Assembly (NCBI GenBank): GCA_022709525.1
Contig: JAKLIQ010000007.1
Location: forward strand, 1 to 49,719
Direction: 5' to 3'
Length of the DNA: 49,719 bases
Source of the DNA: Candidatus Omnitrophota bacterium
GTDB lineage: Bacteria > Omnitrophota > Omnitrophia > Omnitrophales > Aquincolibacteriaceae
Below the pieces are notes generated by a model. The model saw only the letters and a program-made list of their open reading frames with translations, did not search any database and had not been told where the DNA came from. The position numbers and the translations under genes are program-made. Positions within the stretch are counted from its first letter, which is position 1, and each line of letters starts with the position of its first letter. Shown here one piece after another: positions 13,401-34,597 of this stretch.

Positions 13401-16400
13401 GGCTCAACGATCTCCGTGAAGCTGAGCGTTGTGGAGCGCGCAACGCCTGCCGGGGAAACCCAGACACTTTACTATCTCTATGACAGCACTGGCGATCTTC
13501 TTGCCACGGGTATCCAAGCCAAGAACGGAATGATCTTTTTCCAAGGGGTAGATCTGGTGGAAACGCAATTTGTTCCTGTTGCCGAGCTCTACGTCATGCT
13601 TGACCCCGAAGAAGTAAACCTGACACAAGTTCCCGTTAAGGCAAACCAAGCCGAGATCGATTTTGCCCGCGAAGGGGTCTGGGAAGGCGATAAATCCTAC
13701 TCGGTGCAATTCCGCTCTCTTGCGCTCGAGGTATCCGGCGATTTAGGCACAGTCAGCGCCGACGCTTCGGTCCAAAAATCGATCATGGATACGGTAAAGG
13801 TCCTGTACGGATCGACCACCGTTCAGCTGCTGGATTCTTTCGGGAATTCTTTCATGCAGGGCCATTTGGTTACCTTTCAAGAGAACGGCGTTGAAACCGT
13901 CGCGTTTTTAAATATCGACAAAGCCCAAGCGGGATTTGTCTGGACGACCTGCGAGGTTACAAAAAATGGAACCACCCGCCAGGAATTGGCCCAAATGCAG
14001 ATAAAGACCCGTGAGGACAGGACTCACTATGCCGCGACTTCGACAGAGCAGACAGGTTACGTCCATTTTATGAAAGAATTTATTGATCATGCCGCCCAAG
14101 GCGAAAGTAAGGTCCAAAAGGCCTATCAGCAGCTCGGCTTCACATGGACCGCCGAAACATTTACGCAAGCCGCCGCTGCGGCTGAGGCCAATCCCGGCGA
14201 TATGTCGCTGGCCGTTTTATTTGACGCAGTGCCGACCGGTATTCTTGATCCGGACAATTTGATCAGCGGAGCTCAAGAAAAAGCGATTGTCAATTATCTT
14301 AACCTTCCGGATTCCACCGGCCTGCCGCGTTTCCGGCAGAATCTTTACTATATACCAACCGGCCCTGATTCAAAGACCTACGTCCAGGTTTCTTTCAGTT
14401 ACGAAAAAGGATCCGGCGGGCAGATCTCAGGGATCTTTTTTTCCGCGTCCCCAACGGGGACCGAAGGAAAGCCCAACAATGCTTTTATTTTCGCGGAGCG
14501 AAGCGCTGCCGTTCAGGGCGATCTTTACTATGATGCGTTTACCCGGGGGTTTTATGTCGGTACTTATTGGGGTGAGGTCATTCGTTTGCAGGAAGGCCTC
14601 ATTGATTTTTCAAAAACACAAGCCGCGGTAATGGAACTGCAAGGCGGGATTGATTACGGGGAGGCGATAAGCGCTCGAAGCGTTTTCGAATCCGAAACAG
14701 CGACGGAAGGGAGATATAGCGAGAAGTTCCACTCCGATATCTATCGCGGCCAAATTTCCGGCTCCATTACGGATTTTGATGTTTTAACGAACCTTACCCT
14801 TAATAACCAGGGACAACCTACGATCAATGCTCAAGAACTTTCCAATCAAACAGGCATGAATGCCCTGATCGACCTTTTTGGTGTGAACGACGGAAATGGG
14901 CACGGTATTAATGTGGCCAATCTCGCAAGCATCACATGCAGTTTTGATACCAATTCCGGGCATTGGTATGGGTTAGTTGAGGCGGGTCTGATCGAGGGAA
15001 CTGCACCCTATCAATATAGACTCAATGACGGCACCTATGCGACCCGTGAAGTTGATCTGAAGCCGTTCTTTGCCAAAGGAGTCCTTGACTCTTCGGCGCA
15101 AGTCCAGATCTCTTATTCGCCGACGGTCGCAAAGGGCCAAGGGGGATACCAGCTTCAGCTCCAGCAATCTCTTGTGGGCTATCAGGCGGTTCTTTTGCAG
15201 AATCCGGGGGCTTTGGAGCTGATGAGCGGGGTTATGGACAAGGTAATGGGGCCCGAATTCAAGATCGTAGATCCGGAGACGTTTTCTCAGGCGGTTTTTG
15301 CGACCGCCGCTTCTTTAGCAACGCCCAACAGCAGGGGTATCTATCCAAGCTCAGAGGATTTTAATCAGTTATTGGGCTCTATGGCGGTATTTGCCAATCG
15401 TAATTGGGAGTCGGTGAAATTGACACCTTCACCGGTCTCGGGATGGTCCCATGCGGGGATGTTGGATATGAACGGTAATTTTGTGGTCGCTAAAGATGCC
15501 GGGTACTCCATATCTTACCTGGACCCGGATTTTGGTTTTGCGCAAGCCATTCAGCTGGACATGCTCGTAGGTGCGTTCCTTGAAAGCGTTCAAGGAATAA
15601 CGTTTGGTTTTAACTTTACTTTGGACGCCGTCGAGCGGGGCGGGGCTCTCTTTTTTGAGCCCAGCTATCGGCTTGATATTTCAAGCCAAAATCCCAATAG
15701 CGTCGAATTTGCCGAAAACTTCACTCAAAACATTGTCGGAACCTTGGCCGGGTCCGATGTTGCGGTCAAATCTTTCACCAAAGAAGGATTGGAGCGCACG
15801 ATCGGCGTAGATGGTGTGGCGGCCATCAAATCGATTTCGATCACCTTCTCTCCGGTCAATGACCAGGCCCTCGCTCAATCCCTTACCTTTAACGTTTCTT
15901 TTAAATTATCCAGTCTTTCGGGTTTGTCCAAATTGGACAATTTGTACCGGTCGATTTACGGTTGCACAAGCCCCTCGATTACTACCCTGAAGGGGGGAAG
16001 TGCGACCCTGGCTCAAGCGGTCGATCTGGCCGGAGCCACCGTAAGCTTCGCTGTTTTCAGTGGGTTGAACGGGATGAATATCCAGTCGGCCAAGCTTTCA
16101 GGCGAGATCAACAAAGGTTATCAGATTAAATTCCTGGATTCTCCGGATTCTCAGGCCTTTACCCAAGGGCTTGTCCATATCGACCTTGCGCTTTTGCCTG
16201 ATGGCAAGAGAGGGATTGATGAATGGATAGCCATGCCTTTGGCCGCAAGGTTTATGGTAACTAATCCCATATACCAGCTTACAAGATTTACCGCCTGGGT
16301 CGGTGAGGGCGTAAGGGGGTTTTTAGGGTTTGAAAGTTCCAATATTCTCAGCGATGCAGTCGATCTTGCAAATAGCTGGACGGGGGCGGGCCGGAACCAT

Positions 16401-19400
16401 GGATTGGATTTTAGTCTGAAGAGCATCGTGGCTTTTGATACATACGGTACCCCGGCGGGAATCGTCTATGAAACGAGTTCGGGTAGTTGGTTTAATTTGT
16501 GGGATAAGGATTTTGTGACCGCAAGCTTTACCCGTGATGCGATGAATTACCTCCAGGTCGTAAGCATGGGCGCTGATGGTGAGCTTCTTTATAACTCGAT
16601 CGGTACGATCAGTAACGATTATATCCTGAACCTTGCCGGCGATTGGCGGGAAGGGCCTCTTGGTTATTTCTATGGGACCAATGAAATTTCGCTTACCGCC
16701 CATCTTGATTGCCGCAACGGCTTTAATGTGCTCGCTTATCACGACTACGCCTCTGAAGGTTATCAGCAAACACTTGAAAATCTCAAATCTTTTGGCCAAA
16801 AAGTCGTCGTGTCGGTTCAGAAGTGGACGTCAGATAGGATGCAGGAAGGTTATCTCGGCGCAATTGCAATTAGCGGAGCAGCGCTCGCAACTGGGGCCGC
16901 TCTTGCGTTGGGCGGAATAGCTCTAGGCGCTGGCGAGCTTGTTCTGTGGGGCGCCACAATTGCCGTATCGAAGGCAGCAGCGTTTGGCATCGTTGCTCTT
17001 GGCGCTTGGAGTGCCGTTTCTATGTTGGGCGGTGTGTATACAGCTGATGAATACGCAACCTTGGTCGGACAAGGAATCGACCCCTGGCAAGCCGCGATCA
17101 AGATCAGTCAAGACAACAAATGGCTTGGCGTTACAGAAAATGTTTTGTTCAATCTTGCCCTCATCGCCTTTACTTGGAATATCGGCTCCGGGCTCATGCA
17201 ATTAGGCCAGAACCAGGTGGCTTTGCGCGCTTCCACGGCCCGGTTCGCCAACTGGCTTTCCCAGACGAAATTAGCCCAAGGGCTTTCCAAAATACCCTTT
17301 TTCCAGAAGCTTTCTGAACGGACGGGGGTACATGTCCTCGTCAGAACCAATGCGGAAGCGGCGATGCTTGCAAGGTATGCAGTTTGGCAGGGAAGCCAGA
17401 TAGCCGTAGGCAGTACGATTACCTTAAGGGGCGCAAGCGCGCTGGCCGTTCACCTCCTGAAAGGTTTTTCGCTGGTGGGTTTTACCGGGGAAGCCATCCA
17501 CCTCATGATCGAGTTGCCGCTTATGCTCAATACCGCGGCGAGCATCCTTATGGCCGGGAGTTCGGCAACGATCGAAAGCGTGATGCTCGGTATGCCGGCG
17601 GGCGGCCTCTGGAATGATATCAAGCGGGAAGTGGCTTTGATGTTTGTCAGCATGGGAAGCGGCACCGGGTTGGGCAATATGCTCCAGGGGTTTCTCCAGC
17701 CGGAAACCTGGGCCTTTGTCGCGGTCTTCAGCTTCTTAGGCGCAGTTCCGACTTATATGGGGAATACGTTAGGAATCTGGCTCGGCGGGTTTGGCTCCTG
17801 GCTGGGCTCCGTGGTCGGGGTCACAAGCATCGGCGGCCTGCGGGCCGGGGCCTTCAGCGCTGTTTTTAGCGGGCTTAAGAAGATCTGGGATACGTTCCTG
17901 CAGGGCGTTTGGGAAGAAGGCATTAAAGAGCCGATTCTGGGAAACCTGCTTCTTGGTTGGCTGCCGGAGTCTGCCCGTGAATTCTTTGTCGAACTTTTTG
18001 ATATCGCCGACGGCCGGGCCTCGGGTTTTCATCGCGCCGCTCTCAATCGCTTGCAGGGCAACGTTTTAGCGGCAACGACAGCCGCGCCACAGGCGCTTTC
18101 GGCTTTGACTAAGCTGGGAAGCCAGGAGGCGTTGGCGATCCAGCGGGAGTTGGAGCTTGCGCTCCAGACCCAAGATTTTGATGCCATCCAGCGCCATGTC
18201 AAGGAAGCCCTCACATTGATCGGGACCCAGGAAACAGGCGTCGCCCGCTTTGACCAGGCCATTCGGGACTTACGCGCCATGCAGGCGAGTGGAGAATCCT
18301 TCGGTCTCGGTATTCTGGATATTTTGACGCAATCAGATGCTCAGCGGGCCACCAATCCCTTGGTGAAAACCTTTGGCATTGAATTCCTTACGGCGGTATA
18401 CGAGTACCACGAGAATAATCCTTTCGTCGATCTTTCGGGGAATATGGCGCAGGATGTGGCCTCGCTTGCCGTGGTAACGGCGCTTTCGCTCAAGCTTCAT
18501 GGCTTTTCAGGGAAATTCACGATCGGCACGGAAAGCTTTGGTATCGATCAGATGCTCGGCCGTCTTAGCGGCGAGAATGCCAATATCAAGGCCGCGATCA
18601 AGGAGCTGGAGCTCCGGATCAGCAAGATCGCCGACCCTGCTCAGAGGAATTCCGCGATCAATGCTTTTGTCGCCAATCTTGCGACCGCTGGCTCCGTCCT
18701 TACTTATACCGATCCGGCGACAGGCCAGTCCGTTATCTCCGGCCAGGTGCTTGCCAATGCCATTTGGGGAGCATTGGGCGGGCAGATCTCGGTGGATTTT
18801 CTCACGCTTCTTGGCGTGGACCAGAATTTTATCGCGGCTTTTTCAAAATTGTCTCAAGCCGTTCAAGAAACATTCCTGCGGGCGTTAAGCGAGCGTTCGG
18901 CTTCTGCGGATGCTGCGGCTCTCAGCTCTTTGATGCTGGGGGCCCAGATGAGCGTGGACTCCGGGGACATCGAAAAAACCGTGGCTTTGGCGCGCGATCT
19001 TGGAGCTTCAAGATCCGCCCAGCGCGCTTTGCGCGATTTTATGAAATCCAATACTCGCGCGGCCCTTGAAGCTGCCGGGGCGATCCTTACTTTTAACGGC
19101 GGTTTTGATATCGGAAGTTTTCATAATTTCTCACAACTCATTCTTATCGCAGCCCAGATCTATCAAGGCGGAGAAACGATGGTTGCGGCCCTTAGAGGGC
19201 TCGGCCTGCAGGACGCCGCAATCGAGATCCTGGTCCAAAATCCCCATCTTGCGCGAGAAGCTGGTCTGACCATGTTGGAGCATACCGCCAGAGGCGAAAT
19301 GCCTTCTTCCGGCGAGATCGCCCAGTCCCTGCGCGCGGCCGTACTTGCCAGAGCGGACCAAGCACAGTTTAAAGCGATCGTTAAAACCATGTCAGGACGC

Positions 19401-22400
19401 CTTGCGGAGACGGTTTTAAAACGCGTGACGCCGATGTCAGAGGCCCTCTTTGAGGAGTTCCGTACGGATTTCGCCCGGCTTTTAGCGAATACCAGCATTA
19501 CAGCCGACGGAGCGCTTGTCTGCGCCCTGATCGCGGCCGAAGGCGTGATCGCCTTCAGCTTGGATGCGGGTCTTTATGTCAGCTCCGGCCTCCTGACGCA
19601 GAAGCAGGCCGATGCTCTTACAGATCAATCAACGGCCGGAAGATCAAGCGCTCCGGCGAGGGAAGCAAGAGAAGCGCTTTATACGGCCGCTTCCCGCTAT
19701 ATCCTCTACAGCACAAGAAAAGACGGCATTGCTTCCCAGTCAACGCGTGTTCGCCTCACCCAGCTTTTTACCAACCTCAAACTTGATAAAGCGGCTTTGG
19801 CAAATGATCCCGTCAAAGGGGGCCAGCAGTTTACGCTTCTGGTGGGGGTTCTCATGTCCTTGGAAGGCCAGCTCCAGGCCCTGCATGACCAGCAGGCCCG
19901 CCTGATGGAGCAAGGCGCTTCCCAGGCCGTTTTAGCCGACAGCATGGCCGCCGTGCTGGCATTAGAGCAGTCGATCGACGCCGTCAACGGTGCCTTGGAA
20001 TTTTATGGATATAGGAAGGCCCAAACGGAGGATGTCTCTGAAAAAGCCGCAGTTAAAACAGCGGAACAAAAGTCCGAACTATCCCCCGCGAAAGCGGTCC
20101 GAAAATCAGAAACGCTCGAAGAGTCAATCAAGCGGCAGCAGGATCCCGCCGCCGTGGCTCGGGAGGTCAGGAAGCAAGACCGCGAGGACGCTCGCGAGGC
20201 CGGCAAGATGCGCGCTGAGCACCTTGATAAATTCGGGGTAAAAGACTTGATCGTCAATGCCTTGAAGGCGGCGGGCTATAGCGTCCTTTACTGGTTGGTC
20301 GACCGTTTTGCCGGCGTCAGTTACGACCTTAAACGGATCGATCAGGGCGTCGATAAGGGGAATTCGAAAGCTAAAGAAAACCGCGGGATCATCCTGAAGG
20401 CCCTCGAAAACTCCGGGAAAGCTGATCTCATCACAAAAGAGATCGCCAATCGGCGAGGTCTTTATGGCGAAAGAGCCGAGGCCATCTCCTTAGACGGCCT
20501 GACGCTTTCTGAGATCTATCAAACCGAAGTCGGCGGGAAGCTGATCGGAGGTGAGGAAACGATCAATCGTAATCACATTAATCTCGTCCAGCAGCTTCGT
20601 AACAGAGAGATCGGCATGCTCCTTTATGAGGACGAGGTCTCCCACACCCAGGAGCTTGTCGCGGGGCATGCGAAGGATTATTTGATGCGGGATATCCGAG
20701 GTCAGTTAGAAAAAGCCAAAGCCGAGATTGAAGCCTCCAAAGAGACCGACCCCGCCAAACAAGAAGAACTCTTAGAGGAGCTTTTTGTTCTGGAGGCCCT
20801 GCTTAAAGATACGAGCGCAAGGACAGTGGGCGATTTCTTAAAAATTCTCAATCGTTTTCAAGGGCTCAAGAAAGAAGACGGGACGGACCTTTTCACGGAA
20901 GGCGAAAAAGAAGCCCACCTGAACGCTTGGGCGGTTTTACTTGAAAAAACCGGTATTGCCAAGGCGCTTATCGCAGAAGGCGATTCGATCATCGCAAAAA
21001 ACCTCGGCAGGAAAGAGACACTTCGCCAGCTCATGGGGCTTTATAGCTTTTCAGTGGCCTTGGCGCAAGGATGGGCGGGGCTTCATAGCTCCCAGGTCAT
21101 GGCCGCCTGGATCATGGCCCAGGGCTGGAACATTGCCGAGCTTGCGACCGGAGAAGGCAAAAGCGCGGTCGGGGCCCTTGCGGCTTTCGTGAATAGTTAC
21201 ACCAAAAAAGGATCTTTTATCGTCACAACGACCGATATGCTCGCCAAGCGCGACGCCGAAGGGATCGCTTCCCGCGTAAGCCGCTTGACGGGAAGGACCG
21301 TGGGATTGATCCAGGACCGGATGGATAATGCGGCCAAGACCCAAAACTATGCCAAAGATGTGACTTTTGTAAGTGTTAAAAACCTCATGTTCGATGTCAG
21401 CCATGACGTCTTGACGGCCAAGACCGATGGGGAGAAGGTCATCCGGCGGGATGTGAACGGCTGGTTTAAGGATGTTTCAGTGATCGTGGATGAAGCCGAT
21501 AGCGTTTTAATCGACCAATCCATGACCTCTTTTATCCGCGCTTCCCGGGCTGGGGAGATCACGGGGGTTCAGCGCGAGATCCGCCTTGCGTTCGCGAAGA
21601 TGCTCGACCAAGAAGAGGGAGGGTTCGGGAAGCTTCGGGTGGGCGAGCGGGTTTACCGCATTGAGAACGGAAAACGCGTCTATGACGATGTGGCGGAACG
21701 TTATAACCAGGAAGCGATGAGCCAGCTTGACGCGATCTGGAGCCCTTCGGGCGCTTATGCCGTAGCGACAGCTAAGGGCGAGCAAACGGCGCTGGGGATC
21801 TTGCGGGAACTTCAAAGGAACGGAACTCTTTCCAAAGAAGCTTATGAGCTTCTTGTGACAAAGAATAAAGCCGGAGAGACCGTTTTAACCCAGGCCGGTA
21901 AGGATTACTTAAGCGACGCGATCCAGGCCGAATACCTCTACCGTGAGGGCGAGAAATATTTCATTCGGTCCGGGGAGATCATCTTGGTGGATAAAGATAC
22001 CGGCGTGACCCAGGATGGCCAGCGCTTGAACCGGCTCCACCAGGCGATCGAGGCGAAAGAATATCATCTTCACAACCCGAATGTCACGACGATCCATGAA
22101 AGAAGCGTGGAGATCAAGATCCAGGGAGAGAACCAGACCAGTTCGAGTCTTAGCGCCCGCAACGGCATCCGCCGCTTCGGCCGCGTCTCGGGCATGACGG
22201 GAACCGCCGCTCAGGGGAAAGCGCCGAAACAATTTAAGGAGCTTTACGGGCTGACGGTCCGCGAAGTCCCGACCCATAACATACGGCTTCGCCATGACCA
22301 TGAGGTCGAGATCGCGCAAACAGACGCCGAAAGTCTGGCGCGGCTTAAAGCGATCGTGATCCACCACCTCCTGATCGGCCAGCCGATCTTGATCAACACG

Positions 22401-25400
22401 CTTGATGTGAATATGAACAATCAAATAGCCGATTTTCTGGAAGAAGTAAAAAAAGAGCTTGGCGAGAAAGCTCAAGGTATCCCGATCCGCCGTTTTAATG
22501 CCGCGATCCAGGCCGAAGGCGAGGGCGTGATCGAGCTCGCCGGCCAGGGCGGGATCGTTGTGGCGACCAATATCGCGGGCCGCGGCACCGATATCAAGAT
22601 CAGCGAGGAACTCCAGGAAAAAGGCGGGCTTGTGCAGATCAGTATCGGCATGAATGATACGGTACGCGCCGACACGCAAACCAAGGGGCGCGCGGGCCGC
22701 CAAGGCGCGGTCGGGGAAACCTATACGCTCCTTTCTCTGGAGCGTGATCGCGGGTTCCTTGAGCGCGGCCTTCTTAATATCCCGGGCCGCAGTTGGCGCG
22801 GCCGGTTGGCGCGGCTTTTCAAGCAGCAGACCCGGGAGCAGAAACTTTATAACCAAGCCATTCAGGCGGGCGTAAGCACGAAGGAGACCTTGAAGGCGTT
22901 CGAAGTAGCGCAGCGAAATATCGAAAACTATAACGCCAAAACGCTTTTAAGTTCGGCTAGGGCAAGCGATATGCTCTTTGCCTTCCAGCTTATGGCCAAA
23001 CCGGTCTTTGATCGCTTAGAGCAGCTTTTCCGCGAGAGAGTCCAGCGTGCGTATACGGATAATATCCCGTCTATTATCAGCGAAAAGCTTACCAAAGAAG
23101 TCGGTTTTGAGTCCTTTGTCGATCCTTCCAAGCCCTCCGAAGATTGGGATCTTGGAGGTCTTGCAGCCGCGGTCGAGAGGGAATTCGGTGTGCGCTTAAG
23201 TTTCGGGGACCTTCAAGGCGCGGATGCGGGCCTTTTCCGCGATTATGTCGAGCTCGCGCTCGCGCACCATTTTGCGCACCGCGCGCTTGAGGCGCGTCTT
23301 ACCCAAATCCACGGCGAGTTTTTCACAGCAGCCGAAAAACTCCGGGGATCGACAAGCTCGATGAAAGCGTATAGCGAAGCGCTTGCCAAGGCCCATGCCG
23401 AGCGGATGACGAAAGCCGAAAAAGCCTTCTCCGAGGGCATGATCACCGCCGACGAGTTGGCCAAAACGGTTCAAGATGAGGTCAGCGCGCTTAAGCAGCA
23501 TCGGGAGTCGGAAGCGCACGCCCTGGAGCTTGAAAATGAGGCCCGCCAGAAACTTGAAAAAGAAAAGCGCAAAAAGATCCAAAGCCGTTTGGACGCTGCT
23601 ATCGAAGGAATGCAGAGCCCCGCAGCGCCCGCACTCGGCGAACTTAGCCGTGCGAGGAAAAGAGAACTTGGAAAATTAAGGGTCGTAGAAGATATCCAGC
23701 TAGTCGCTGCGCCGATCCCTCAGGTTCAGGTGGTCCAGCCCTACCAGGTGGCCCGGGTTGATGTTTCCGTGCCATCCGCTGCGACCGCCCGGGCGCAGAC
23801 GATCGAAAGCCAAATCCAGGCCATGCGGGACTCAGGAGAGCGCCTCGGCCTTGTCAAGTCCGGTGAAAGCTATCAATTGATCGCTCTTGCCGCTGATGGA
23901 AAAAGCCATACGGTCCATGAACTTGGCATAAAGGAACCAAGCCGGGAATATCGCACGCTTTTAAGTATTCTTTCAAGGAATTATGATTTGATGGGGGTCC
24001 GGGTAACTCCCAAAGGAGCTATCCTTGCCGGCCACATCGAAGGCGAGGCGTTCCTTGATGCGGAGGCCGGGTCGATCGTGATGGATGCGAAAATAAAAGG
24101 GGAACTCCATATCGCCCAAGGGGCTGTGGTCGCCACCGCCTCGCTTGGCGGCGGCCAGGTCGGTCCTCATAGCGTCGTAAAGAATGTTGATGTAAAAGGG
24201 AAAATACAAGCAGGAGAAGGTTCGCGTGTCGAGTTTGTCAAAGCCGGGCAGGTGATCGTCGGGAATGAGTCCGTGCTTCTTTATGGAAAACGCGAAAATA
24301 AGAGAATTGAAGTGGGAGATCGCCAATATCGGGGCCAGGATGTGGATGGGGTTTGGAAGGCCCGGGGTAATGAGAATCTGGCTCGTATGATCCTTGAGGG
24401 GCGGATCTCAACTGAAATGCGCCCCAGTTTTTGGATGTCTTTAAAGATGTGGTTTTTAAGGATCCTTTATGCCCCCGAAATAAGAAAATCCGATCCTCTT
24501 CCGGTCAAGCGGTTCAAAAGATGGCTCAATGAGCTCGGGAAAGCGCTTTATCCGCTCATCCTCTCAGACCTGGTCATGAGAAATAAACTTCAAGACGAGA
24601 TCCGCTGGGACCTTCGGGACCTCCACGACTATCGCAGGGAACGGCTCGCGCGGGCGCTACTAGCACAAAGAGGCATCCATTCGGATGATAAGCAGAAGAT
24701 CCTTGAAGCGGCGCTTACGACCTTCCAATTTGATTCGCTTGAATTCAGGATCCTGGCCAAGCGGCTTGGGCACCGGGCCTTTGAGCTTTGGCTTAAAGAA
24801 GCATACGGAGTGGATCTTACAGTCCAGTCGGTCCACGAGGCCAATCAAGCGCTGCGCGAGCGGCCTGAGCTGGCCCGGGAATACGGCAAAGAAGGAGGGC
24901 AGCGTTACGACATCTTAGCGGGGCTTTATCGACGGTTCTTGATGGATAAGAAGACCTCCGACGATTTTTCAAAGAAAGCCGCCGAAGAATCCTCCTTTTT
25001 CAAGGGGCGTCCCGTAAGGGGAGCGTGGGGCGATGCGCCGGTCATGGTCCAATCCCTGGCGGAAAAACTGGCAATGCTTGAACTTAATATCACCCGCGAA
25101 GACCTTGCGGGGGCGGATATCCGCACGCAATACGAAGCACTTGTTAAAAAATATAACGAAACGCTCGCCCTTGAATTGCAACGCATGGCCTCTTGGGATT
25201 ATCTCCATTATGAGCGCCAGAACCTGGCCGTCCAGGAGGTTCGTACCCGCCTTGACGGGTGGCTTAAGGCCGGGGACTATGCTGCGGCCGCTGAATTTTT
25301 AGTTAGCCAATGGGAAGGCATGAGTCCTAGCGCAAATCGTCCTAATACAAAAGATCGCGTCGCATTGGTCAGGACCGTCCGGGAACTTCTCAAACGGGGG

Positions 25401-28400
25401 GATTTAAAAGTCCATGCCGAGCGCATGTCGCGATTTGCCAATATCCCCGAGGCCAGGGAGTTGATCGTGCGTTATCGCCAGATGGGCTATGACGAGGCGA
25501 CCGCGAAGATCATGGCCAACCGGGAGTGGCTTAAGCAGATGGGACATCCGGACTATTGGAACGTGGTCCTTGAAGTGACGGAGCGGGGAAGCCGGGCGCT
25601 TTCCGGTTTCTGGGCGATCAATGACGCAAAACTTGAAGATTGGTATTGGGCAAGCGGCGCCGAGGCGTTCGTTTCGGCGGGCTCGTGGGATCCGGCTAAG
25701 CGGGAAGATCCGGGGATGCTTCTGGCTAAAACCGGTTTTGCGGTGATTGGCGATAAGTGGATGAATGAATCGGATATCCATGAGAAATTGCACCTTAATT
25801 TCCCGATGCCGACCGGGGTTGACATGAAGACAAACGACATCGAAGAGATCATCAACCTCCTCACCCAGATGGAATCAGGCCTGCGGGAAGAGGGGCTTGA
25901 CGGAATGCATTATACCCGCGAGAAGATCCTCGGGAAATTGCGTTCCTATGCGGCGCGCGGCCAATTTGAGGGCGATCCCGAGCTTGCCGAAGCGGTCTTA
26001 GATGCCGCGCTTTACCTAAGGAGCGTTCTTCCCATGCCAGCCGTGATGAAGATCCTTAAGAATTCAAGGTCACCGCGGAACCTTTTGATGTGGCACCTCT
26101 TGCCGCCCGAAGAGATCAAACGGCTTGCGGCAGGCACCTTGCCTGAATTTCCCGAAGATGCCGCGCAGCTTTTAGCCGGCGAGGATCGAGAGATCCAGTT
26201 ATCCACCGGCAAAGAAGGCCGGGCCCAGGTTGATCTGGCTGTGATCCAAAAACAAGTCCAAGAGGCCTTAAACGAGGATCGAATCGATGTTTTGATGGCC
26301 CGTTTATTGGCTGGCGGCGCAATTAGCGTCTGGACAGCTTACTATCTTTTCCGCGATCATTATGAGGATTCCGTTGTTCAACAGATCCTGGCGCTTTTTG
26401 TGACAGGCGATAAGGCCTATGAGAATCTCACTTCTCTTGCCGCAGCCGTCCTTAAGGTCTATCCAGGCGATCCCAACGGAGCCATCTCAGAACCGATCCT
26501 AAGAGGTATCTTCGAAGCAATTGCCAAAAATGCCGATGAAACGCAGATCCAGCTACTTGACCGGATCCTGCGGTCGGATGCCACCGAAGAAGAAGGCGGT
26601 CTAAAACGCACTGTTGCGGCACGCGTCTGGGATGCGATGCTTTTCCAGTCGGTCAATAATCCGGCCCTTAAAGAGTTCCTGAAAGCCAATTATGTGACTC
26701 AGGTGGATACGCTCACCTCCTTGCTTGGGGATATCCAATCAGGCAAGATCCCGAATCAGGAAGCGATCCGGGCGCTTCAGAGCCTGCCTACGGCGGATGC
26801 GCTATTTGACCAAGCCCATATGCCTTTTGAGCTTGGATTAAGCCTGCCGGCGGATGATCACGCTAAGATGCAACCGTCCGATCAGGTCTATGCCGTGACA
26901 GGAGCGCGCCGCACGGGTTATTCCTCCACCTCGATAGTTTATAACCTTCTTTTCATGCTCCATAACCACCCGATGCACGGCGCGTGGGCTCAAGTCCTTC
27001 CATCGGGTGAATTTGCCCAGTATGACGGCCTCCTGCAGTTTACAGAAAAGACCGCTGACGATAAGTTTAAACGGACCGGTTACGGCTACATCGAAACTCC
27101 TTTTGGGATTCTGCGTTATTCAGTCGTAAGCACGGCCGAAGGAGAGATGGCACCCTCCGGCTCTTCGGTCACGTTTGACGGAAAAATGCATACGATCGAG
27201 GCAAGCATACTCCAGGAACATAACCAAGACCGGCAAGGTGTCCCAAGCAAGCTCGAAGAACTTGCTTATGGCTTAGCCGCCCAATCTAAGGATTTCACAA
27301 TGGTCTTAGATGATAAGCTTCCGATCAAGTTTGAGTTCCGGAGTTGGCAATCCCTTGCCCAGAGAAAAGATATTAGCGCTTTTGTCATCAACGGGAACGG
27401 TCAATCGATGGTCCAGCCGATGACCGAGGAACAGAGCCAGAAGATCTTGACCGAACTGGCAAAACAAACGCCGGAAGGCCGGGCTGAGCTGCGGCTTGCC
27501 GCCACTCCCGCACAAGTCGCACCGCGCGCTGAACTCAAGGAAGCCGCTATCACACCGGTCGCACTACCGGCAAAGGGCGTTACAGAAGGGGCTAAGGATC
27601 GAGAAGCATTGCTTAATACTGCTTTTGAGAATGGGAAGGTGACAGTCCAGCAGATAGTGCCCAACTATCAATTCCCGAAAGAAATGCCCGAGTATCGCTG
27701 GGCGTCCGAGGAAGACCTTAGGTTGCGGATGAAGGGGAATGTAGCGTATTTCGATGAGGGTAAGAATGAGATCGTCATCAACTACGAAAAAGTTAAAGAC
27801 CTCCCCGAGGCCGAGATGCTCCAGAACCTCGAGATCGCCATGGTCCATGAACTTATCCACGCCGCAGGCGGTAGTGAGGTTGAGGCCTACACCGCCCAAG
27901 TCGAGGCGATGAAGAAGCTTGCTCCCGAACGCTTCGCTTCACAGATCGACCTTATCGAAGCGCTTCTGGCCTTAGCTCAAGGTAATGTCTCGGATATCAC
28001 GATCCCTGAACGCGAAAAACTCCAGATCCTTGCCAATGAGATCTTGATCGCCAAAGGCGACAGGGCTCAGATCTTTGAAGAGATCTTAAACCGCCTCCAA
28101 TCTCAAGTGTATGCGATCGGCAACACACCTCTTAACGCCATGGCCGGGTTCATTCCTTTGACGGATGCAGAGCAAGTCGGCGGGCTCATCGAACGCAAGT
28201 TCAAATATGAAGCCACAAGCCGGGAGCACAATATCTTTACGGTCACAACGCAGGATATGGAAAATATCCCCGGCCTTGCCGCCCAGGTCATGCGGCTTAA
28301 AGAGCTTGGCTACGCGGTCTTTGAATTTGATGAGGCTGCGATCCGCGAGATCTTTGGCGCAAGCGTTGATCCTTACATGGCTGTCGCGCGGCTTGCCGAG

Positions 28401-28568: not shown

Positions 28569-28600
28569 CCATTTCAACTAGCGCAGTTAAAATCGGTTAG
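28565..28600 (+). terminator. Hairpin over the giant 1 stop codon, terminator-like
   Basis: CTAACC pairs with GGTTAG, then ATTTCAACT with AGTTAAAAT (one mismatch) around the loop AGCGC, with one bulged C on the 3' side. The TAA stop lies in the outer stem. There is no T-run here, but the sister copy at 32476-32509 ends in TTTTT, which supports a terminator role. Confidence 0.6.
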
Positions 28601-28640
28601 CGATCAGCTTCCAATCTTCCCTCCACCCTGCAGCATAACG

Positions 28641-28663
28641 CTGTACACACCCGGTGTGTACAG
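28641..28663. repeat. Palindromic hairpin
   Basis: CTGTACACAC and GTGTGTACAG form a perfect 10-bp stem around the loop CCG. No T-run follows. It sits between the giant 1 terminator and a second palindrome. It could be an operator, terminator or REP-like element. Confidence 0.55.
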
Positions 28664-28675
28664 GGATGATCTACA

Positions 28676-28706
28676 ACCATTTCACACCCGGGTGTGTGAA
28701 ATGGGT
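28676..28706. repeat. Shared hairpin family ACCATTTCACAC, copy 1
   Basis: ACC-ATTTCACAC pairs with GTGTGAAAT-GGT around a CCGGGT apex, with one unpaired G in the 3' arm. Three close relatives sit at 29810, 30717 and 34207. It lies just upstream of the module A promoter and is followed by GTGTAATGC, which also recurs in altered form after the copy at 34207 and alone near 30892. Confidence 0.7.
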
Positions 28707-28731
28707 GTAATGCTCCTTATTAGTTTTCCTG

Positions 28732-28790
28732 TTGTATTATGGGTGACAATCGTATATATTATGAGTGACAAAAGAGTATCACAAGGAGGT
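28732..28790 (+). promoter_or_regulatory. Module A promoter with paired operator repeats and RBS
   Basis: TTGTAT (28732-28737) and TATATT (28755-28760) are 17 bp apart. Two copies of TATTATGRGTGACAA at 28735-28749 and 28757-28771 are 22 bp apart, two helical turns, and overlap the promoter. That is the classic layout for autorepression by the antitoxin. AAGGAGGT at 28783-28790 precedes the ATG at 28795. Confidence 0.65.
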
Positions 28791-28794
28791 GGCT

Positions 28795-29082
28795 ATGCGT
28801 TTTGTTTCGGTGAGAGATTTGAGGGGGAGGCCGGCTCAGATCTGGAAGCAATTGGCCCGTTTTAAGGATATGGTTCTGACGCTAAACGGAAAGCCGATCG
28901 CGATCATTTCCAGTACGTCAGAAGATCAGCTGGAAGAGAATCTTGCCGAGGTCCGGAAGGCAAGAGCGATGGTTGCGCTGGACGCGATCCGCCGGGAATC
29001 CGCCCGCCGCGGTCTTGACAAAATGACCATGGAAGAGATCGATGCGCTGGTCCAAGAAACCCGTAAGGCTCGCGCCAAATGA
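28795..29082 (+). CDS. Type II antitoxin, Phd/YefM-like (module A)
   Basis: A 95-residue protein opening MRFVSVRDLRGRPAQIWKQL and continuing with VLTLNGKPIAIISS, the N-terminal DNA-binding pattern of Phd/YefM antitoxins; the C-terminal half is charged and helical and should bind and block the toxin. The start at 28795 is chosen because AAGGAGGT lies 4 bases upstream; an in-frame ATG at 28765 has no such site and falls within the operator repeats. The stop overlaps the start of the PIN gene (ATGA), so the two are translationally coupled. Autoregulation is inferred from the 15-bp repeats over the promoter. Family call by pattern is good; DNA target not proven. Confidence 0.8.
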   Translation: MRFVSVRDLRGRPAQIWKQLARFKDMVLTLNGKPIAIISSTSEDQLEENLAEVRKARAMVALDAIRRESARRGLDKMTMEEIDALVQETRKARAK

Positions 29083-29552
29083 AAGTTGTTGTTGATACCA
29101 ATGTGCTGGTTTCCGGGATCCTTTCAGCGGAAGGCCCGCCGGGAAGAATAGTGGATTGGATCATCGAAGGTCATCTTCGCGTTTGCTGCAATTCCAGGAT
29201 CATCGCAGAATATGAACTGGTTTTAAGACGGCCGAAATTGGCTTTGTCTGGTTTGTTGGTGGCACGCCTTTTAACGCAAATGACCCCCGCCAGAGAACTG
29301 GCTTCTGGAGTTCCGCTTTTACATCATCTTCCGGACGCGAGTGATGAGGTATTTCTTGAAGCTGCCTTGGCGGGAAGCGTTGATTGTCTTATAACGGGGA
29401 ACTTAAAGCACTTCCCGCTGTCTTGCCGGCAGGGGATGCGAGTGCTTTCTCCAAAAGAATTCCTGGAGTTCTACGCCGATCGGCAATCCGGCGGTTCCGG
29501 TAAGGTCAAAAGTCCATCGACCCGCTATAAAGCCAAAAGACGACGTTCTTAA
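29079..29552 (+). CDS. PIN-domain toxin, COG1569-like (module A)
   Basis: A 157-residue protein with the PIN ribonuclease pattern: VVVDTNVLVSG with D6, IIAEYELVLRRPKL with E44, DASDEVFLEAAL with D89, and GSVDCLITGNLKHFP with D102. The acidic residues coordinate Mg2+ for RNA cleavage in this family. Length fits the COG1569 group of PIN toxins. A basic tail of about 25 residues (ending in KAKRRRS) is extra. The gene overlaps the antitoxin by 4 bases. Target RNA is unknown. Its stop at 29550-29552 is followed at once by a remnant of the giant 1 tail. Confidence 0.85.
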   Translation: MKVVVDTNVLVSGILSAEGPPGRIVDWIIEGHLRVCCNSRIIAEYELVLRRPKLALSGLLVARLLTQMTPARELASGVPLLHHLPDASDEVFLEAALAGSVDCLITGNLKHFPLSCRQGMRVLSPKEFLEFYADRQSGGSGKVKSPSTRYKAKRRRS

Positions 29553-29714
29553 GTCGCCGTCACGATCGATGCCATGAAACTCCCGATCGAGACCTACGAG
29601 GCCCACCAATCCGTCGCCTGATTATCATTATAACTTTTCAGTTGGCAATCAGTGCTGTCCTTGCCAACCATTTTAAAAATTAAAAGAAATGGCAAGGACG
29701 CCCAAGCCGCGTAA
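29553..29714 (+). pseudogene. Decayed giant-gene tail T3, interrupted by an 81-bp element
   Basis: Directly after the PIN stop, codons read to MKLPIETYEAHQSVA then TGA. Removing 29619-29699 rejoins the sequence to GCCCAAGCCGCGTAA, giving HQSVAQAA-stop, which matches the giant 1 end YQSIAQAA-stop. The GCC triplet is present on both sides of the insert (29616-29618 and 29700-29702). The part before MKLP does not clearly match giant 1, so this may be the tail of a different giant gene. Confidence 0.65.
29619..29699 (+). mobile_element. 81-bp hairpin element, copy 1, with GCC duplication
   Basis: The element starts TGATTATCATTATAAC and ends TGGCAAGGAC. It forms two hairpins: TGATT with AATCA, and a 10-bp stem GTCCTTGCCA (29657-29666) with TGGCAAGGAC (29690-29699) that ends exactly at the element edge. 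Near-identical and diverged copies lie at 34017-34096 and 30800-30878. There is no coding capacity, so it would be a non-autonomous MITE-like element. Confidence 0.6.
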
Positions 29715-29809
29715 ACCAAAACCAGCCCAAGACTTCAGACCGCAGCTCTCAGTCCTCAGCCATCAGCATTCGGCCTTCGGCAACTTTGATCTTACGTGGA
29801 CACCGTACA
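29715..29809. repeat. TCAG-rich minisatellite-like segment, copy 1
   Basis: Spaced TCAG units (for example CTCAGTCCTCAGCCATCAGC) lead into CGGCAACTTTGATC. The copy at 34112-34207 has the same order with different unit content. The segment separates a tail stop codon from its hairpin. It is not coding as far as can be seen. Confidence 0.5.
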
Positions 29810-29841
29810 ACCATTTCACACCCCGGGTGTGTGAAATCGGT
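29810..29841. repeat. Shared hairpin family, copy 2
   Basis: ACC-ATTTCACAC pairs with GTGTGAAAT-GGT; the apex is CCCGGGT and one C (29838) is bulged. It closes the module A tail block and may terminate transcription. The 60 bases that follow, to about 29905, show nothing further. Confidence 0.7.
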
Positions 29842-29905
29842 CCCATCCACTCAAATCTGTTCAGCGCCGAGCTCTAGAGCCGGGGACTGGAGGGGGTAGC
29901 TTGTG

Positions 29906-29962
29906 TACACATAACTTGACACATTTAAAATAGCGTGGTACCGTTATGTGTAACGGGAGGTG
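29906..29962 (+). promoter_or_regulatory. Module B promoter, inverted-repeat operator and RBS
   Basis: TTGACA at 29916-29921 is a consensus -35; a weak -10 TACCGT follows after 17 bp at 29939-29944. The pair TACACATAAC (29906-29915) and GTTATGTGTA (29943-29952) forms a 10-bp inverted repeat enclosing the promoter, a likely antitoxin operator. GGGAGGTG at 29955-29962 is the ribosome binding site. Confidence 0.6.
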
Positions 29963-29967
29963 AATTT

Positions 29968-30234
29968 ATGAGGCTTGAATCTATCAGGCGGTTTCGGAGC
30001 GGTATTTCAGGGTATACCCGAAGAGGGGAGATGGTGATTGTGACTAAAAGCGGCCGGATGGTCGGCTGTTTTCTGCCTTTGTCGGCCACGGAGGAAATTC
30101 CGATCGAACTGAAACGGGAGTTTGTCGCGACGTTGGGAAGCAAGATCGCGGCACAATTAGGAAAGAATAAGGTCCAAGAAAAAGAGGTTCTGGATGACTT
30201 CCGGGCATTCAAAAAGGTTCGCCGCGGACAGTAA
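29968..30234 (+). CDS. Small antitoxin, probably Phd/AbrB-like (module B)
   Basis: An 88-residue protein starting MRLESIRRFRSGISGYTRRG and continuing VIVTKSGRMVGCFLPL, a short beta-strand pattern with G-R-x-V-G-x-F similar to Phd-type antitoxins (K-x-G-K-P-V-A-x-L). The C-terminal half is helical and charged. The ATG at 29968 is chosen because GGGAGGTG lies 5 bases upstream; an upstream in-frame GTG at 29935 would sit on the promoter. It overlaps the next gene by 41 bases, which implies coupled translation. Family membership is inferred more from its position before a PIN gene than from strong motifs. Confidence 0.7.
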   Translation: MRLESIRRFRSGISGYTRRGEMVIVTKSGRMVGCFLPLSATEEIPIELKREFVATLGSKIAAQLGKNKVQEKEVLDDFRAFKKVRRGQ

Positions 30235-30622
30235 CGTTATTCTTTCCGCAGTGATCGGAAAGGCCGCGCTCCGCATATTTCTCCAGCCGGAAATCGAGCT
30301 GATCACGACGCAATTTAATTTCGATGAAGTTTTGGAATATTTGCCACGCCTTGCGTCCCGGTATCACCTGGATGAAACCTCCTTGTCTTTACAACTTAGA
30401 ATGCTGCCCCTACGCGTTTTCTCTGAAAAACATTACAAAATTCAGTTTCCAAAAGCCGGAAAGCTGTTACAGGAGCGGGACTCGGATGACGCTCATCTTG
30501 CGGCGCTGGCACTTGCGGAAAATGTTCCCGTATGGTCGAACGACAAGGATTTCGAGAAGCTTCCGTTCTCTGTTTATACGACCGCGCGGCTTTTAAGGAT
30601 TTTTGAGGGAAAGAAAAGTTGA
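30194..30622 (+). CDS. PIN-domain toxin (module B)
   Basis: A 142-residue protein with a PIN pattern: FAADSNVILSAVIG with D12, FDEVLEYL with E45 or E48, RDSDDAHLAALALA with D98/D99, and VPVWSNDKDFEKL with D117. These acidic residues match the four-carboxylate Mg2+ site of PIN ribonucleases. It differs clearly from the module A toxin, so A and B are not a recent duplication. The start lies 41 bases inside the antitoxin gene; no strong RBS is visible there, which fits translational coupling. The stop TGA lies in TTGATGA, the exact motif at which the giant-tail copy T1 begins. Confidence 0.78.
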   Translation: MTSGHSKRFAADSNVILSAVIGKAALRIFLQPEIELITTQFNFDEVLEYLPRLASRYHLDETSLSLQLRMLPLRVFSEKHYKIQFPKAGKLLQERDSDDAHLAALALAENVPVWSNDKDFEKLPFSVYTTARLLRIFEGKKS

Positions 30623-30716
30623 TGACCCAATACGAAATCCACCCTCGAGGTCCCAACGGCCTCTACTCCGTTAAAGCATGCCTGTCAGGCGTCATCAAAA
30701 CCCGGATTGCAGAACA
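30617..30716 (+). pseudogene. Decayed giant-gene tail T1
   Basis: From TTGATGA onward the sequence reads MTQYEIHPRGPNGLYSVKAC and continues to GVIKTRIAEQ, matching the giant 1 end (MMQYEIQPRGANGLYSVKAC). A 26-base run starting TCCGTTAAAGC is identical to giant 1. There is no start site; the copy joins directly to the end of the PIN gene and is cut off by a hairpin before the YQSIAQAA part. Confidence 0.8.
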
Positions 30717-30748
30717 ACCATTTCACACCCCGGGTGTGTGAAATCGGT
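30717..30748. repeat. Shared hairpin family, copy 3
   Basis: Same sequence as the copy at 29810 (stem ATTTCACAC with GTGTGAAAT, outer ACC with GGT, one bulged C at 30745). It directly follows the T1 tail, as expected for a 3' terminator of that tail. The 50 bases that follow are unassigned. Confidence 0.7.
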
Positions 30749-30799
30749 CCCGCACTCCATAGCCCAAAGATTTTAACCCACCCAAACTTGACACCCGCC

Positions 30800-30878
30800 T
30801 GATTATCATTAAATTTTTCAATTGAAAATCAGCGCTGCCCTTGTCGACCATTAAGCAAAAGAAATAAACGACAAGGAC
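30800..30878 (+). mobile_element. 79-bp hairpin element, diverged copy 3
   Basis: Same start (TGATTATCATTA) and end (AAGGAC) as the copies at 29619 and 34017, with about a third of the bases changed. The stem is kept: CCTTGTCG (30839-30846) with CGACAAGG (30869-30876) replaces CCTTGCCA with TGGCAAGG, two compensated pairs. GCC precedes it but the usual tail sequence does not follow. Confidence 0.55.
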
Positions 30879-30945
30879 GGTCTCAAAAGAAGTGTAATGC
30901 CCCCCATTAGCGTAATGTTCTTCTTTGCTCAGAAAAAAATAGTCG

Positions 30946-31010
30946 TTGCATTTGGAGCGCTATTTAATATAATTCTCGCTATACAGAACGTATTAACTCA
31001 ATCCATTGAG
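30946..31010 (+). promoter_or_regulatory. Module C promoter and small palindrome
   Basis: TTGCAT at 30946-30951 and a perfect TATAAT at 30968-30973 are 16 bp apart. CTCAATCCATTGAG at 30997-31010 is a 6-bp inverted repeat in the leader, just before the gene. There is no clear Shine-Dalgarno sequence ahead of the ATG at 31024; the leader is AT-rich. Confidence 0.6.
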
Positions 31011-31023
31011 ATAAATTAAAAAA

Positions 31024-32214
31024 ATGACACAACTACCTCATTTTAAAAGAGATATAACAAAAATTATACTGAATAGGGTCACAGGAAAGCCGAATTTCAT
31101 TCAGGCGATCATTGGGCCTCGCCAGGTCGGGAAAACGACGGCGGTGAAGCAGGTGCTTGCGGAACTCAATATTCCGGCCGAGTATGCCAGCGCGGATCTT
31201 CCGGCGCCTCCCGATGCGCTATGGATTCGCAAGCATTGGGAGCGGGCGCGAGTGTTGGCAAAAGAGGCGGGGAGTGGCGTCCTTGTCCTGGATGAGGTTC
31301 AAAAAGTTCATCGTTGGTCTGAGGAGGTCAAGCGTTTGTGGGATGAGGAAGTTACGTTAGGTTCCGGATTGCGAGTGGTTTTGCTGGGCTCCTCGTCGCT
31401 TTTGATCCAGAAAGGGCTTTCTGAAAGTCTGGCGGGCAGGTTCGAGGTTTTGCGCTGTCTTCATTGGGATTTCAAAGAATGCCGGGAATGTTTTGGATGG
31501 GATCTGGAACAGTATATTTTTTTCGGAGGATATCCGGGAGCGGCCGCGCTTATAAAGGATGAACCGCGATGGGCGAATTACGTCGTCGACTCCTTGGTGG
31601 AAACGGCTGTTTCAAAGGACGTGTTGTTATTGAATCCGGTGGAAAAGCCGGCGCTTTTGAGGCGGCTTTTTATTCTCGCCTGCGAATATGGCGGACAGAT
31701 CATTTCCTATCAGAAGATGCTTGGCCAGTTATCCGGGATCGTGAACACCACAACGATCGCTCATTACCAGCGCCTCCTTGAAGCGGCTTATTTGATAGCG
31801 GGTCTTGGCAAGTATTCCGGCTCCAAGGTCCGGATGCGCAATTCGAGTCCGAAATGGCTGCCTCTTACCACGACGCTCATATCAGCGCTTTCCCGGCGGA
31901 GTTTCCAGGAGGCGAAAAATGACCCTGCTTTTTGGGGAAGACTTACCGAATGCGCCGTCGGGAGCTGCCTTTTCCGGCTTGCGGAAAAGTCTGGAATGGG
32001 GCTCTACTATTGGCGAGAGGGGAATTATGAGGTCGATTTCATCCTTCAAAAAGGGAAGTCTCTGTCAGCGATCGAAGTCAAGAGTGGTTATGTTCGATCC
32101 CGTTTGAGCGGAATGGATCGAGTCGAACGGCGCTTTCCAAAAATAAAACGCGTTGTAGTCGGAGGCGATATCTCCGTTCAGGATTTTCTGGAAAACCCAG
32201 ACGGCGTATTTTGA
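31024..32214 (+). CDS. AAA ATPase with DUF4143-type C-terminal domain (module C)
   Basis: A 396-residue protein with Walker A GPRQVGKTT (K37), Walker B VLVLDEVQ (D90, E91) and a sensor-like VVLLGSSSLL. The C-terminal part has a winged-helix-like segment and then YEVDFIL and AIEVKSG, a possible PD-(D/E)xK nuclease-like core (D338, E351, K353). This is the standard build of the ATPase/DUF4143 family, abundant in candidate-phylum and anaerobe genomes and often found among mobile or defence genes. Biochemical function in the family is poorly known. It stands alone under its own promoter, and a giant-tail copy follows 28 bases after the stop. Confidence 0.88.
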   Translation: MTQLPHFKRDITKIILNRVTGKPNFIQAIIGPRQVGKTTAVKQVLAELNIPAEYASADLPAPPDALWIRKHWERARVLAKEAGSGVLVLDEVQKVHRWSEEVKRLWDEEVTLGSGLRVVLLGSSSLLIQKGLSESLAGRFEVLRCLHWDFKECRECFGWDLEQYIFFGGYPGAAALIKDEPRWANYVVDSLVETAVSKDVLLLNPVEKPALLRRLFILACEYGGQIISYQKMLGQLSGIVNTTTIAHYQRLLEAAYLIAGLGKYSGSKVRMRNSSPKWLPLTTTLISALSRRSFQEAKNDPAFWGRLTECAVGSCLFRLAEKSGMGLYYWREGNYEVDFILQKGKSLSAIEVKSGYVRSRLSGMDRVERRFPKIKRVVVGGDISVQDFLENPDGVF

Positions 32215-32241
32215 ATTTCAAGCCCCACGCCTGTCGAAGTG

Positions 32242-32476
32242 CTCGGGAAATCACAATTCGATAAATTGATGGCTCAGTATGAGATCCAACCTCGCACTGC
32301 CGACGGCTTCTACTCCGTCACAGCTTGTCTGATGGGTGTCATCAAAACGCTCATTGTTGAACTCACTACCCGCCGAGAAGTATTGGTTTCCGCATAAGGA
32401 AGACGAGCCCAACAATCCCTGCCTCTACCTGTCGGTAGACAGGTGCCGGCAGGCAGGCGTCGCCCAGGCCGCCTAA
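32242..32476 (+). pseudogene. Decayed giant-gene tail T2 with inserted REP-like hairpin
   Basis: The sequence reads LGKSQFDKLMAQYEIQPR then FYSVTACLMGVIKTLIVELTT, clearly the giant 1 tail, before a stop at 32395-32397. Further on, CAATCC (32413-32418) and TCGCCCAGGCCGCCTAA (32460-32476) restore the final SxAQAA-stop once the 41-bp hairpin between them is removed. AAATCACAATTCGATAAATT is part of a 24-base identity with giant 1. Confidence 0.85.
32419..32459. repeat. REP-like double hairpin inserted in tail T2
   Basis: Outer arms CTGCCT (32419-32424) and AGGCAG (32451-32456) enclose an inner stem ACCTGTC (32427-32433) with GACAGGT (32438-32444). This CCTGTCGG/GGCAGGCAGG style resembles REP palindromes moved by Y1 transposases. 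It splits the last codons of the tail close to where the 81-bp element sits in other copies. Confidence 0.6.
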
Positions 32477-32509
32477 CCATTTCAACTAGCGCAGTTGAAA
32501 TCGGTTTTT
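32476..32509 (+). terminator. Rho-independent terminator closing tail T2
   Basis: ATTTCAACT (32479-32487) pairs perfectly with AGTTGAAAT (32493-32501) around AGCGC, followed by CGG and TTTTT. It is the clean version of the hairpin at the giant 1 stop codon and confirms that T2 carries the whole 3' end of a giant gene, terminator included. Confidence 0.75.
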
Positions 32510-32527
32510 GCGCTCCGTTTTCTCGAA

Positions 32528-32600: not shown

Positions 32601-32609
32601 AACGGCAAA

Positions 32610-33223: not shown

Positions 33224-33262
33224 CTGATCTTCGGAATGTGTCGTCATGCGTAAATTCATCTC

Positions 33263-33290: not shown

Positions 33291-33296
33291 TCCCTT

Positions 33297-33991: not shown

Positions 33992-33998
33992 ATAAAAA

Positions 33999-34486: not shown

Positions 34487-34597
34487 ATGATGATCGCCTA
34501 TCATAGCGATGAGAAGCCGTGGCTCATCAAAGGGCTGAGTCTTTTTGTGATCGTGACGTTTATCATGACGCAAAGCGACATTCAGCTGGCCCATGCG
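34487..34597 (+). other. Giant 2: signal peptide
   Basis: Residues 1-37: a basic/polar start (SDEKPWLIK), a short hydrophobic core (GLSLFVIVTFIM) and an AHA cleavage-like site before YAPAAPAPVPAG. The proline/alanine stretch after it is typical of a mature N-terminus. The core is short (12-13 residues), so a noncanonical signal or anchor is possible. Confidence 0.6.

What the first reader, a model, noticed from the sequence alone, without database searches (positions are those of the whole stretch)
20985..23330. A complete SecA-type motor inside a 9,500-residue surface-type protein
Walker A, DEAD box, PPXD-like insert, GMTGTA, AGRGTDI, GRAGRQG, scaffold and wing segments are all there in order. 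Departures from housekeeping SecA (GEGKS for GEGKT, exact DEAD, GRAGRQGAVGE, no zinc tail) suggest a specialised motor. It lies after two hydrophobic clusters and before protease-like sites. It could power export of this protein or of partners, or act as an effector in another cell.
Basis: partly seen in the sequence, partly recalled or inferred. Interest (0 to 1): 0.8.

Follow-up and report, generated by a model that had tools for sequence, protein, structure and literature searches.

The report
SecA-like motor in giant exported protein
One of two giant proteins encoded side by side in an uncultured Omnitrophota bacterium carries a real, conserved relative of the protein-export motor SecA; the same arrangement recurs across the phylum, and because close counterparts start with an export signal the motor may end up outside the cell that makes it, possibly working inside prey.

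Summary
Window 21,084-23,310 encodes a SecA-family ATPase (Pfam SecA_DEAD E 4e-42; PDB SecA E 7e-49; AlphaFold2 model whose best 36 PDB matches are all SecA) inside an ORF of at least 9,521 aa that is cut by the contig start. The genome is Omnitrophota and has a separate housekeeping secA (906 aa, zinc tail) and a single secY. 'Complete' is too strong: the ATPase, part of the PPXD and the long scaffold helix are present, but the two-helix-finger signature and zinc tail are absent. Related SecA modules sit in giant ORFs of at least 17 Omnitrophota genomes (up to 39,033 and 45,379 aa). Those closest to the window form a clade apart from housekeeping SecA, keep the catalytic motifs and evolve under purifying selection. 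Seven giants with a readable start (six with SecA, plus ORF2) begin with a signal peptide; in four, no transmembrane-like segment lies between signal and motor. The tandem paralogue ORF2 carries a cryptic SF2-like motor in the same slot. Best reading: a SecA-derived motor in an exported predation protein, probably acting in the target cell. As I recall, a 2023 preprint already reports SecA-DEAD domains in most Omnitrophota giant genes, so the kind is known; the topology and motor swap may be new.

The parts
3..28568 (+). ORF1, giant protein of at least 9,521 aa, 5' end cut by the contig start
849..1214 (+). F5/8 type C (discoidin-like, usually carbohydrate- or surface-binding) domain of ORF1
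   Evidence: Pfam PF00754 E 1.6e-13
5691..6272 (+). first hydrophobic cluster (ORF1 aa 1897-2090), matched by ORF2 aa 10889-11079
   Evidence: hydropathy and BLAST
16410..19529 (+). domain X (ORF1 aa 5470-6509) preceding the motor; 33% identical in ORF2 and related segments in G024 and G026; contains a hydrophobic hairpin at 16,854-16,994
21084..23310 (+). SecA-like motor (ORF1 aa 7028-7769): NBD1, partial PPXD, NBD2, scaffold helix
21144..21164 (+). Walker A, ATGEGKS
21489..21503 (+). Walker B / DEAD box, DEADS
22191..22205 (+). SecA motif GMTGT
22575..22595 (+). motif V, AGRGTDI
22686..22706 (+). motif VI, GRAGRQG
22878..23060 (+). predicted 61-residue scaffold helix
   Evidence: AlphaFold2 model
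23235..24311 (+). segment after SecA conserved in G024 and G026 (helical linker, small domain, glycine-rich possibly beta-helical stretch; that description is by eye)
   Evidence: HMM match ORF1 7745-8103, E 1.7e-109; ORF1 was one of the sequences used to build the HMM
25779..25793 (+). HEKLH metallopeptidase-like site (HExxH)
   Evidence: sequence
27564..28565 (+). C-terminal domain with HELIHAAGG (HExxH at 27,846-27,860), also at the end of ORF2 (about 80% identical) and of giants in G001, G002 and G021
34487..49717 (+). start of ORF2, tandem paralogue of 18,673 aa (stop to stop) continuing to contig position 90,487; begins with a signal peptide (about 34,487-34,597)
28400..32506 (+). remnant copies of the giant gene's 3' tail (28,400-28,535 is the intact one; 30,582-30,717; 32,229-32,364) and of its stop/3' flank (32,460-32,506, 96%)

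Best explanation
Shown: the window encodes a SecA-family ATPase module inside a giant multidomain protein of an Omnitrophota bacterium, distinct from the genome's housekeeping SecA, with catalytic residues kept, and similar modules recur in giant proteins of the phylum. Inferred: the giant protein is exported through the ordinary SecYEG route by a signal peptide and takes part in attack on other cells. The motor is not used in the producer's cytoplasm; it becomes active once that part of the protein reaches the target cell's cytoplasm, where ATP is available. There it would move or pull polypeptide (the rest of the giant chain, or target proteins) using the SecA NBD1/NBD2/scaffold ratchet, without the SecY-inserting finger and zinc tail. 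Metallopeptidase and, in relatives, cell-wall-hydrolase domains on the same chain would breach the target. Delivery, substrate and direction are not shown.
For: SecA identity. Separate canonical secA (906 aa, zinc tail) and one secY. Recurrence in giant ORFs: (39,033 aa in the same genus; 45,379 aa in a single-contig genome). Phylum: G005:C47 matches the record of Candidatus Omnitrophica bin-627 by contig number, length and position. Clade apart from housekeeping SecA, 99/96 support for the split. Purifying selection: 2 nonsynonymous against 10 synonymous changes in 617 codons, pN/pS about 0.06; second pair dN/dS about 0.13 with dS near saturation. Signal-peptide-like starts in six SecA giants (G026C117, G038C33, G038C15, G373C129, G088, G063) and in ORF2; no TM-like segment between signal and motor in the first four. 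Cysteine low in most giants (0.03-0.28%; G088 is an exception at 0.95%, G086 0.62%). M23 after SecA in two giants; M48, M50 and weak LysM in G287; HExxH sites. Precedents: SecA-like domains in Amoebophilus effectors (PMC3482391) and long SecA genes in Wolbachia wBol1 (PMC3639933). Published view of Omnitrophota giant proteins as predation factors (PMC10066038).
Against: ORF1's own N-terminus is missing, so its signal peptide is inferred from the paralogue. Signal peptides and TM segments were judged by hydropathy and by eye, not a trained predictor. In the window's clade hydrophobic segments precede the motor (ORF1 5618/5646; G005 32265/32302), so a cytoplasmic motor cannot be excluded there. 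No delivery route into a target cell is known, and no expression or biochemical data exist. Some giants also carry ordinary cytoplasmic-type domains (GNAT, ACT, M20, HTH), which the model does not explain.
Confidence: 0.45

Rival explanations
1. Self-export motor: the C-terminal part of the giant protein stays in the producer's cytoplasm, anchored by the hydrophobic segments, and the SecA module helps drive export of the thousands of preceding residues, or of partners, through SecYEG.
For: In the window's clade the motor lies late in the chain (7,020 of at least 9,521; 33,940 of 39,033; 10,832 of 14,634) and after hydrophobic segments. ATP is available only in the cytoplasm.
Against: In G373C129, G038C33, G038C15 and G026C117 the motor follows the signal peptide with no TM-like segment between, so it would itself be exported. 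The two-helix-finger signature and zinc tail are absent. A C-terminal motor is made last and cannot help earlier stages of export.
Confidence: 0.22
2. The giant chain is a precursor cut by proteases into many proteins, and the SecA module is released as a separate accessory (SecA2-like) ATPase.
For: HExxH sites in the same chain; other giants mix unrelated enzyme domains including GNAT, ACT and M20; processing of giant Omnitrophota proteins has been suggested (cited in PMC13104272).
Against: The signal peptide would still carry the module out of the cytoplasm in the relatives; the finger signature is missing; no cleavage sites are known; no second secY.
Confidence: 0.15
3. The SecA core has been recruited as a nucleic-acid or protein remodelling helicase-type effector and does not translocate polypeptide.
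For: After SecA, the next fold matches are SF2 helicases such as DinG and XPD. ORF2 carries a different SF2-like motor in the same slot, so the slot may need any SF2 motor.
Against: SecA-specific features are kept: GMTGT, a partial PPXD, the long scaffold helix.
Confidence: 0.13
4. Assembly artefact or decaying fusion without function.
For: The genome is a draft assembly; two relatives have frame breaks (G024 at a run of N; G026C9).
Against: 9,521 codons open; the same module continuous in G026C36, in the 39,033-aa ORF of G005 and in a single-contig genome; purifying selection.
Confidence: 0.03

Closest known systems
Giant proteins of Omnitrophota (PMC10066038; West-Roberts et al. 2023 bioRxiv 10.1101/2023.11.21.568195)
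   Same: Same phylum, same size class, TM segments, proposed predation role. From memory (preprint not held): most full-length giant genes there encode divergent SecA DEAD domains.
   Different: I could not read the preprint. The signal-then-SecA order, the SecA-M23 coupling, the missing finger and the motor swap in the tandem paralogue are described here from my own analysis; whether any of them is in the preprint is unknown to me.
Housekeeping SecA / accessory SecA2
   Same: NBD1, NBD2, partial PPXD, scaffold helix, all ATPase motifs.
   Different: Embedded in a giant chain; about 25-29% identity to housekeeping SecA over long alignments; finger signature and zinc tail absent; not paired with a second SecY.
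Long SecA-domain genes of Wolbachia wBol1 and insects, and Amoebophilus effectors (PMC3639933, PMC3482391)
   Same: SecA ATPase domain inside a long protein of a cell-associated bacterium; Wolbachia has a housekeeping SecA elsewhere; effector role proposed for Amoebophilus.
SF2 helicases (DinG, XPD)
   Same: Fold of the motor core.
   Different: Much weaker fold match than SecA (E 2e-9 against 4e-34).

Membership tests
SecA ATPase family | Significant match to the SecA DEAD, P-loop and PP_bind profiles | tested here: met
   all over cut-off
SecA ATPase family | Walker A/B, GMTGT, GRGTD, GRxGRQG motifs in order | tested here: met
SecA ATPase family | SecA fold | tested here: met
   AF2 pLDDT 82.7, pTM 0.77; 36 best PDB hits SecA. 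The alignment used was rich in SecA, which favours this result; with 5 rows only the model was poor
SecA ATPase family | Two-helix finger that enters SecY (LRxGIxLRxYxQxDP region) | tested here: not met
   found in none of 16 giants; C-terminal HMM match E 5.5e-4 only. The patterns are strict (one of nine housekeeping SecAs missed both)
SecA ATPase family | C-terminal zinc tail (not universal in SecA) | tested here: not met
   present in the genome's own SecA
Functional preprotein translocase | SecYEG-dependent ATP-driven preprotein translocation | not testable with these tools
   needs biochemistry
Accessory SecA2/SecY2 system | Second SecY in the genome | tested here: not met
   one SecY only in a 94.7% complete draft
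Secreted effector / polymorphic-toxin-like protein | Export signal at the N-terminus | tested here: inconclusive
   missing in ORF1 (truncated); present in ORF2 and six SecA-bearing giants
Secreted effector / polymorphic-toxin-like protein | Delivery into another cell | not testable with these tools
   needs experiment

The most novel reading that the evidence does not exclude
Omnitrophota export giant proteins that carry their own ATP-driven SF2 motor (SecA-type or a cryptic second type, interchangeable in one slot), and this motor works in the prey's cytoplasm, using prey ATP to pull the giant chain or its cargo in: a self-powered injected protein.
Probability: 0.2. Interest if true: 0.9.

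Novelty: new member of a known kind. Interest (0 to 1): 0.5.

Why it matters
SecA is normally a free cytoplasmic motor. Finding it fused into exported giant proteins raises a testable question: what does an ATP motor do on the far side of the membrane? If it works in prey cells it would be an unusual self-powered delivery mechanism and a function for some of the largest known bacterial proteins.

Tried and rejected
AlphaFold2 with only five giant relatives gave a useless model (pLDDT 42); a 58-row alignment worked. A single-sequence scan of named genomes found nothing; the alignment scan worked, but most of its hits are ordinary or accessory SecA of other phyla. The viral scan gave one SecA-like protein of 728 aa, not a giant. 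SecA was sought in ORF2 and not found. Profile comparison of the ORF2 motor with SecA was inconclusive (probability 5.6). No Rfam match in the window. The G024 frame break is at a run of N, hence an assembly gap. A phylum-wide count of giant SecAs was limited because housekeeping SecA fills the match list. The Omnitrophota preprint is not held.

Full report
Observation. The window is bases 1-49,719 of contig C59 (118,521 nt) of a 2.04-Mb draft genome. Bases 3-28,568 are one open frame of 9,521 codons cut by the contig start. The stretch 21,084-23,310 is a SecA-family ATPase: SecA_DEAD E 4.2e-42, P-loop_SecA 7.5e-18, SecA_PP_bind 2.4e-8, PDB SecA best E 7.3e-49. All ATPase motifs occur in order. 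An AlphaFold2 model on 58 sequences has pLDDT 82.7 and pTM 0.77, and its 36 best PDB matches are all SecA, the best other fold being a DinG helicase at E 2e-9. The alignment was rich in ordinary SecA, which helps this result.

What is missing. The C-terminal third resembles housekeeping SecA only weakly (E 5.5e-4), and the two-helix-finger signature that in SecA enters SecY was found in none of 16 giant copies. The search patterns are strict: one of nine housekeeping SecAs also lacked both. The zinc tail is absent, while the genome's own SecA (906 aa, contig C12) has it. There is one SecY, so no accessory SecA2/SecY2 pair is seen.

Taxonomy and relatives. Genome G005, same genus, holds contig C47 that agrees in number, length and match position with a named record of Candidatus Omnitrophica bin-627; G024 and G026 likewise agree with Omnitrophica records. 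So the window is Omnitrophota. SecA modules lie inside ORFs longer than about 1,900 aa in G000, G005, G021, G024, G026, G038, G041, G063, G086, G088, G121, G140, G214, G254, G287, G312 and G373: 39,033 aa in G005; 45,379 aa with two SecA_DEAD matches in the single-contig genome G088. Of 19 genomes chosen for having few contigs, four have one in an ORF of at least 3,000 aa.

Origin and selection. In a tree of 44 proteins the window's copy groups with G005, G024, G026 and G140 and, less firmly, with G287, G312 and G021, apart from all housekeeping SecAs (split 99/96). More distant giant copies do not form one clade with it and have long branches, so single origin is undecided. Between G024 and G026C36 there are 10 synonymous and 2 nonsynonymous changes in 617 codons; a more distant pair has dN/dS about 0.13 with near-saturated dS. 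The module is under purifying selection in these relatives.

Architecture. ORF1 has an F5/8 type C domain near its visible start, hydrophobic clusters at aa 1897-2090 and 5618-5664, a domain X at 5470-6509, the SecA module at 7028-7769, a conserved following segment, and HExxH sites at 8593 and 9282, the latter in a C-terminal domain shared with ORF2 and with giants in G001, G002 and G021. ORF2 (18,673 aa) is a tandem paralogue; ORF1 aa 1 aligns near ORF2 aa 9,280, so ORF1 may be about twice as long as seen.

Export. ORF2 and six SecA-bearing giants with a readable N-terminus (G026C117, G038C33, G038C15, G373C129, G088, G063) start with a positively charged stretch, a hydrophobic core and, in most, an AxA-like site, read by eye. 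In the first four of these six, hydropathy shows no TM-like segment between signal and SecA. If the signals work, the motor lies outside the producer's cytoplasm, where there should be little or no ATP. Neighbouring domains in giants include M23 (two giants), M48, M50, weak LysM, HEAT and a cellulase-like domain, but also GNAT, ACT, M20 and HTH, which argue for caution.

A second motor. In ORF2 the SecA slot holds a different P-loop protein with PTGTGKT, DEAD, an FSGT-like motif and an LRGID motif. Pfam gives only sub-threshold ResIII (6.7e-4) and DEAD (8.6e-3). Relatives occur in giant ORFs of G011, G014, G038 and G039 and in a 1,614-aa contig fragment of G022. Comparison with SecA was inconclusive. 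The motor slot may thus accept more than one motor type.

Mechanism. The reading I favour, at 0.45, is an exported predation protein whose SecA-derived motor acts in the target cell's cytoplasm. Shown: identity, recurrence, selection in relatives, separate housekeeping SecA. Inferred: export of ORF1, delivery, polypeptide as substrate. Rivals are self-export, release by processing, and a helicase-like role.

Known or new. SecA domains in long proteins are on record for Wolbachia and insects, and SecA-like domains for Amoebophilus effectors (PMC3639933, PMC3482391). Giant Omnitrophota proteins are on record (PMC10066038). From memory, the West-Roberts 2023 preprint states that most full-length giant genes encode divergent SecA DEAD domains; it is not held and I could not check it. 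I therefore file this as a new member of a known kind.

Noticed in passing
contig C59 about 80,966-84,565 (ORF2 aa 15,500-16,699, beyond the window; L018:11267-14866): Cryptic SF2-like motor in ORF2 in the slot where ORF1 has SecA; relatives in long or giant ORFs of five other Omnitrophota genomes.
   Followed up: partly
window 28,400-34,241: Two extra copies of the giant gene's 3' tail, a copy of its stop and 3' flank, and four copies of a palindromic element between ORF1 and ORF2: possible remains of further giant paralogues.
   Followed up: partly
window 28,765-33,815: Toxin-antitoxin-type genes between the giants: PhdYefM/PIN_3, an unassigned gene with PIN_2, AAA_14-DUF4143 (PADLOC candidate PDC-S01), PhdYefM/ParE, AbiEii-like nucleotidyltransferase.
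   Followed up: yes
G088:C1:1156625-1292761: 45,379-aa ORF in a single-contig Omnitrophota genome with two SecA_DEAD matches and a signal-peptide-like start, preceded directly by a 1,483-aa ORF with its own signal.
   Followed up: partly
L046, L051, L088, L096, L112: Short SecA-like proteins (667-730 aa) without a zinc tail in Pseudomonadota form their own clade in the tree.
   Followed up: no
ORF2, G026C117, G038C33, G063, G088 N-termini: Similar extended signal sequences (a K/R/N-rich W-L/M-x-K/R-like stretch before the hydrophobic core, QDI before the cleavage-like site in G063 and G088), possibly a common targeting signal of Omnitrophota giants.
   Followed up: no
G086:C3 (5,341-aa visible part, aa 4,579-5,193): SecA module with two TM-like segments between Walker A and the GMSGT motif.
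   Followed up: no
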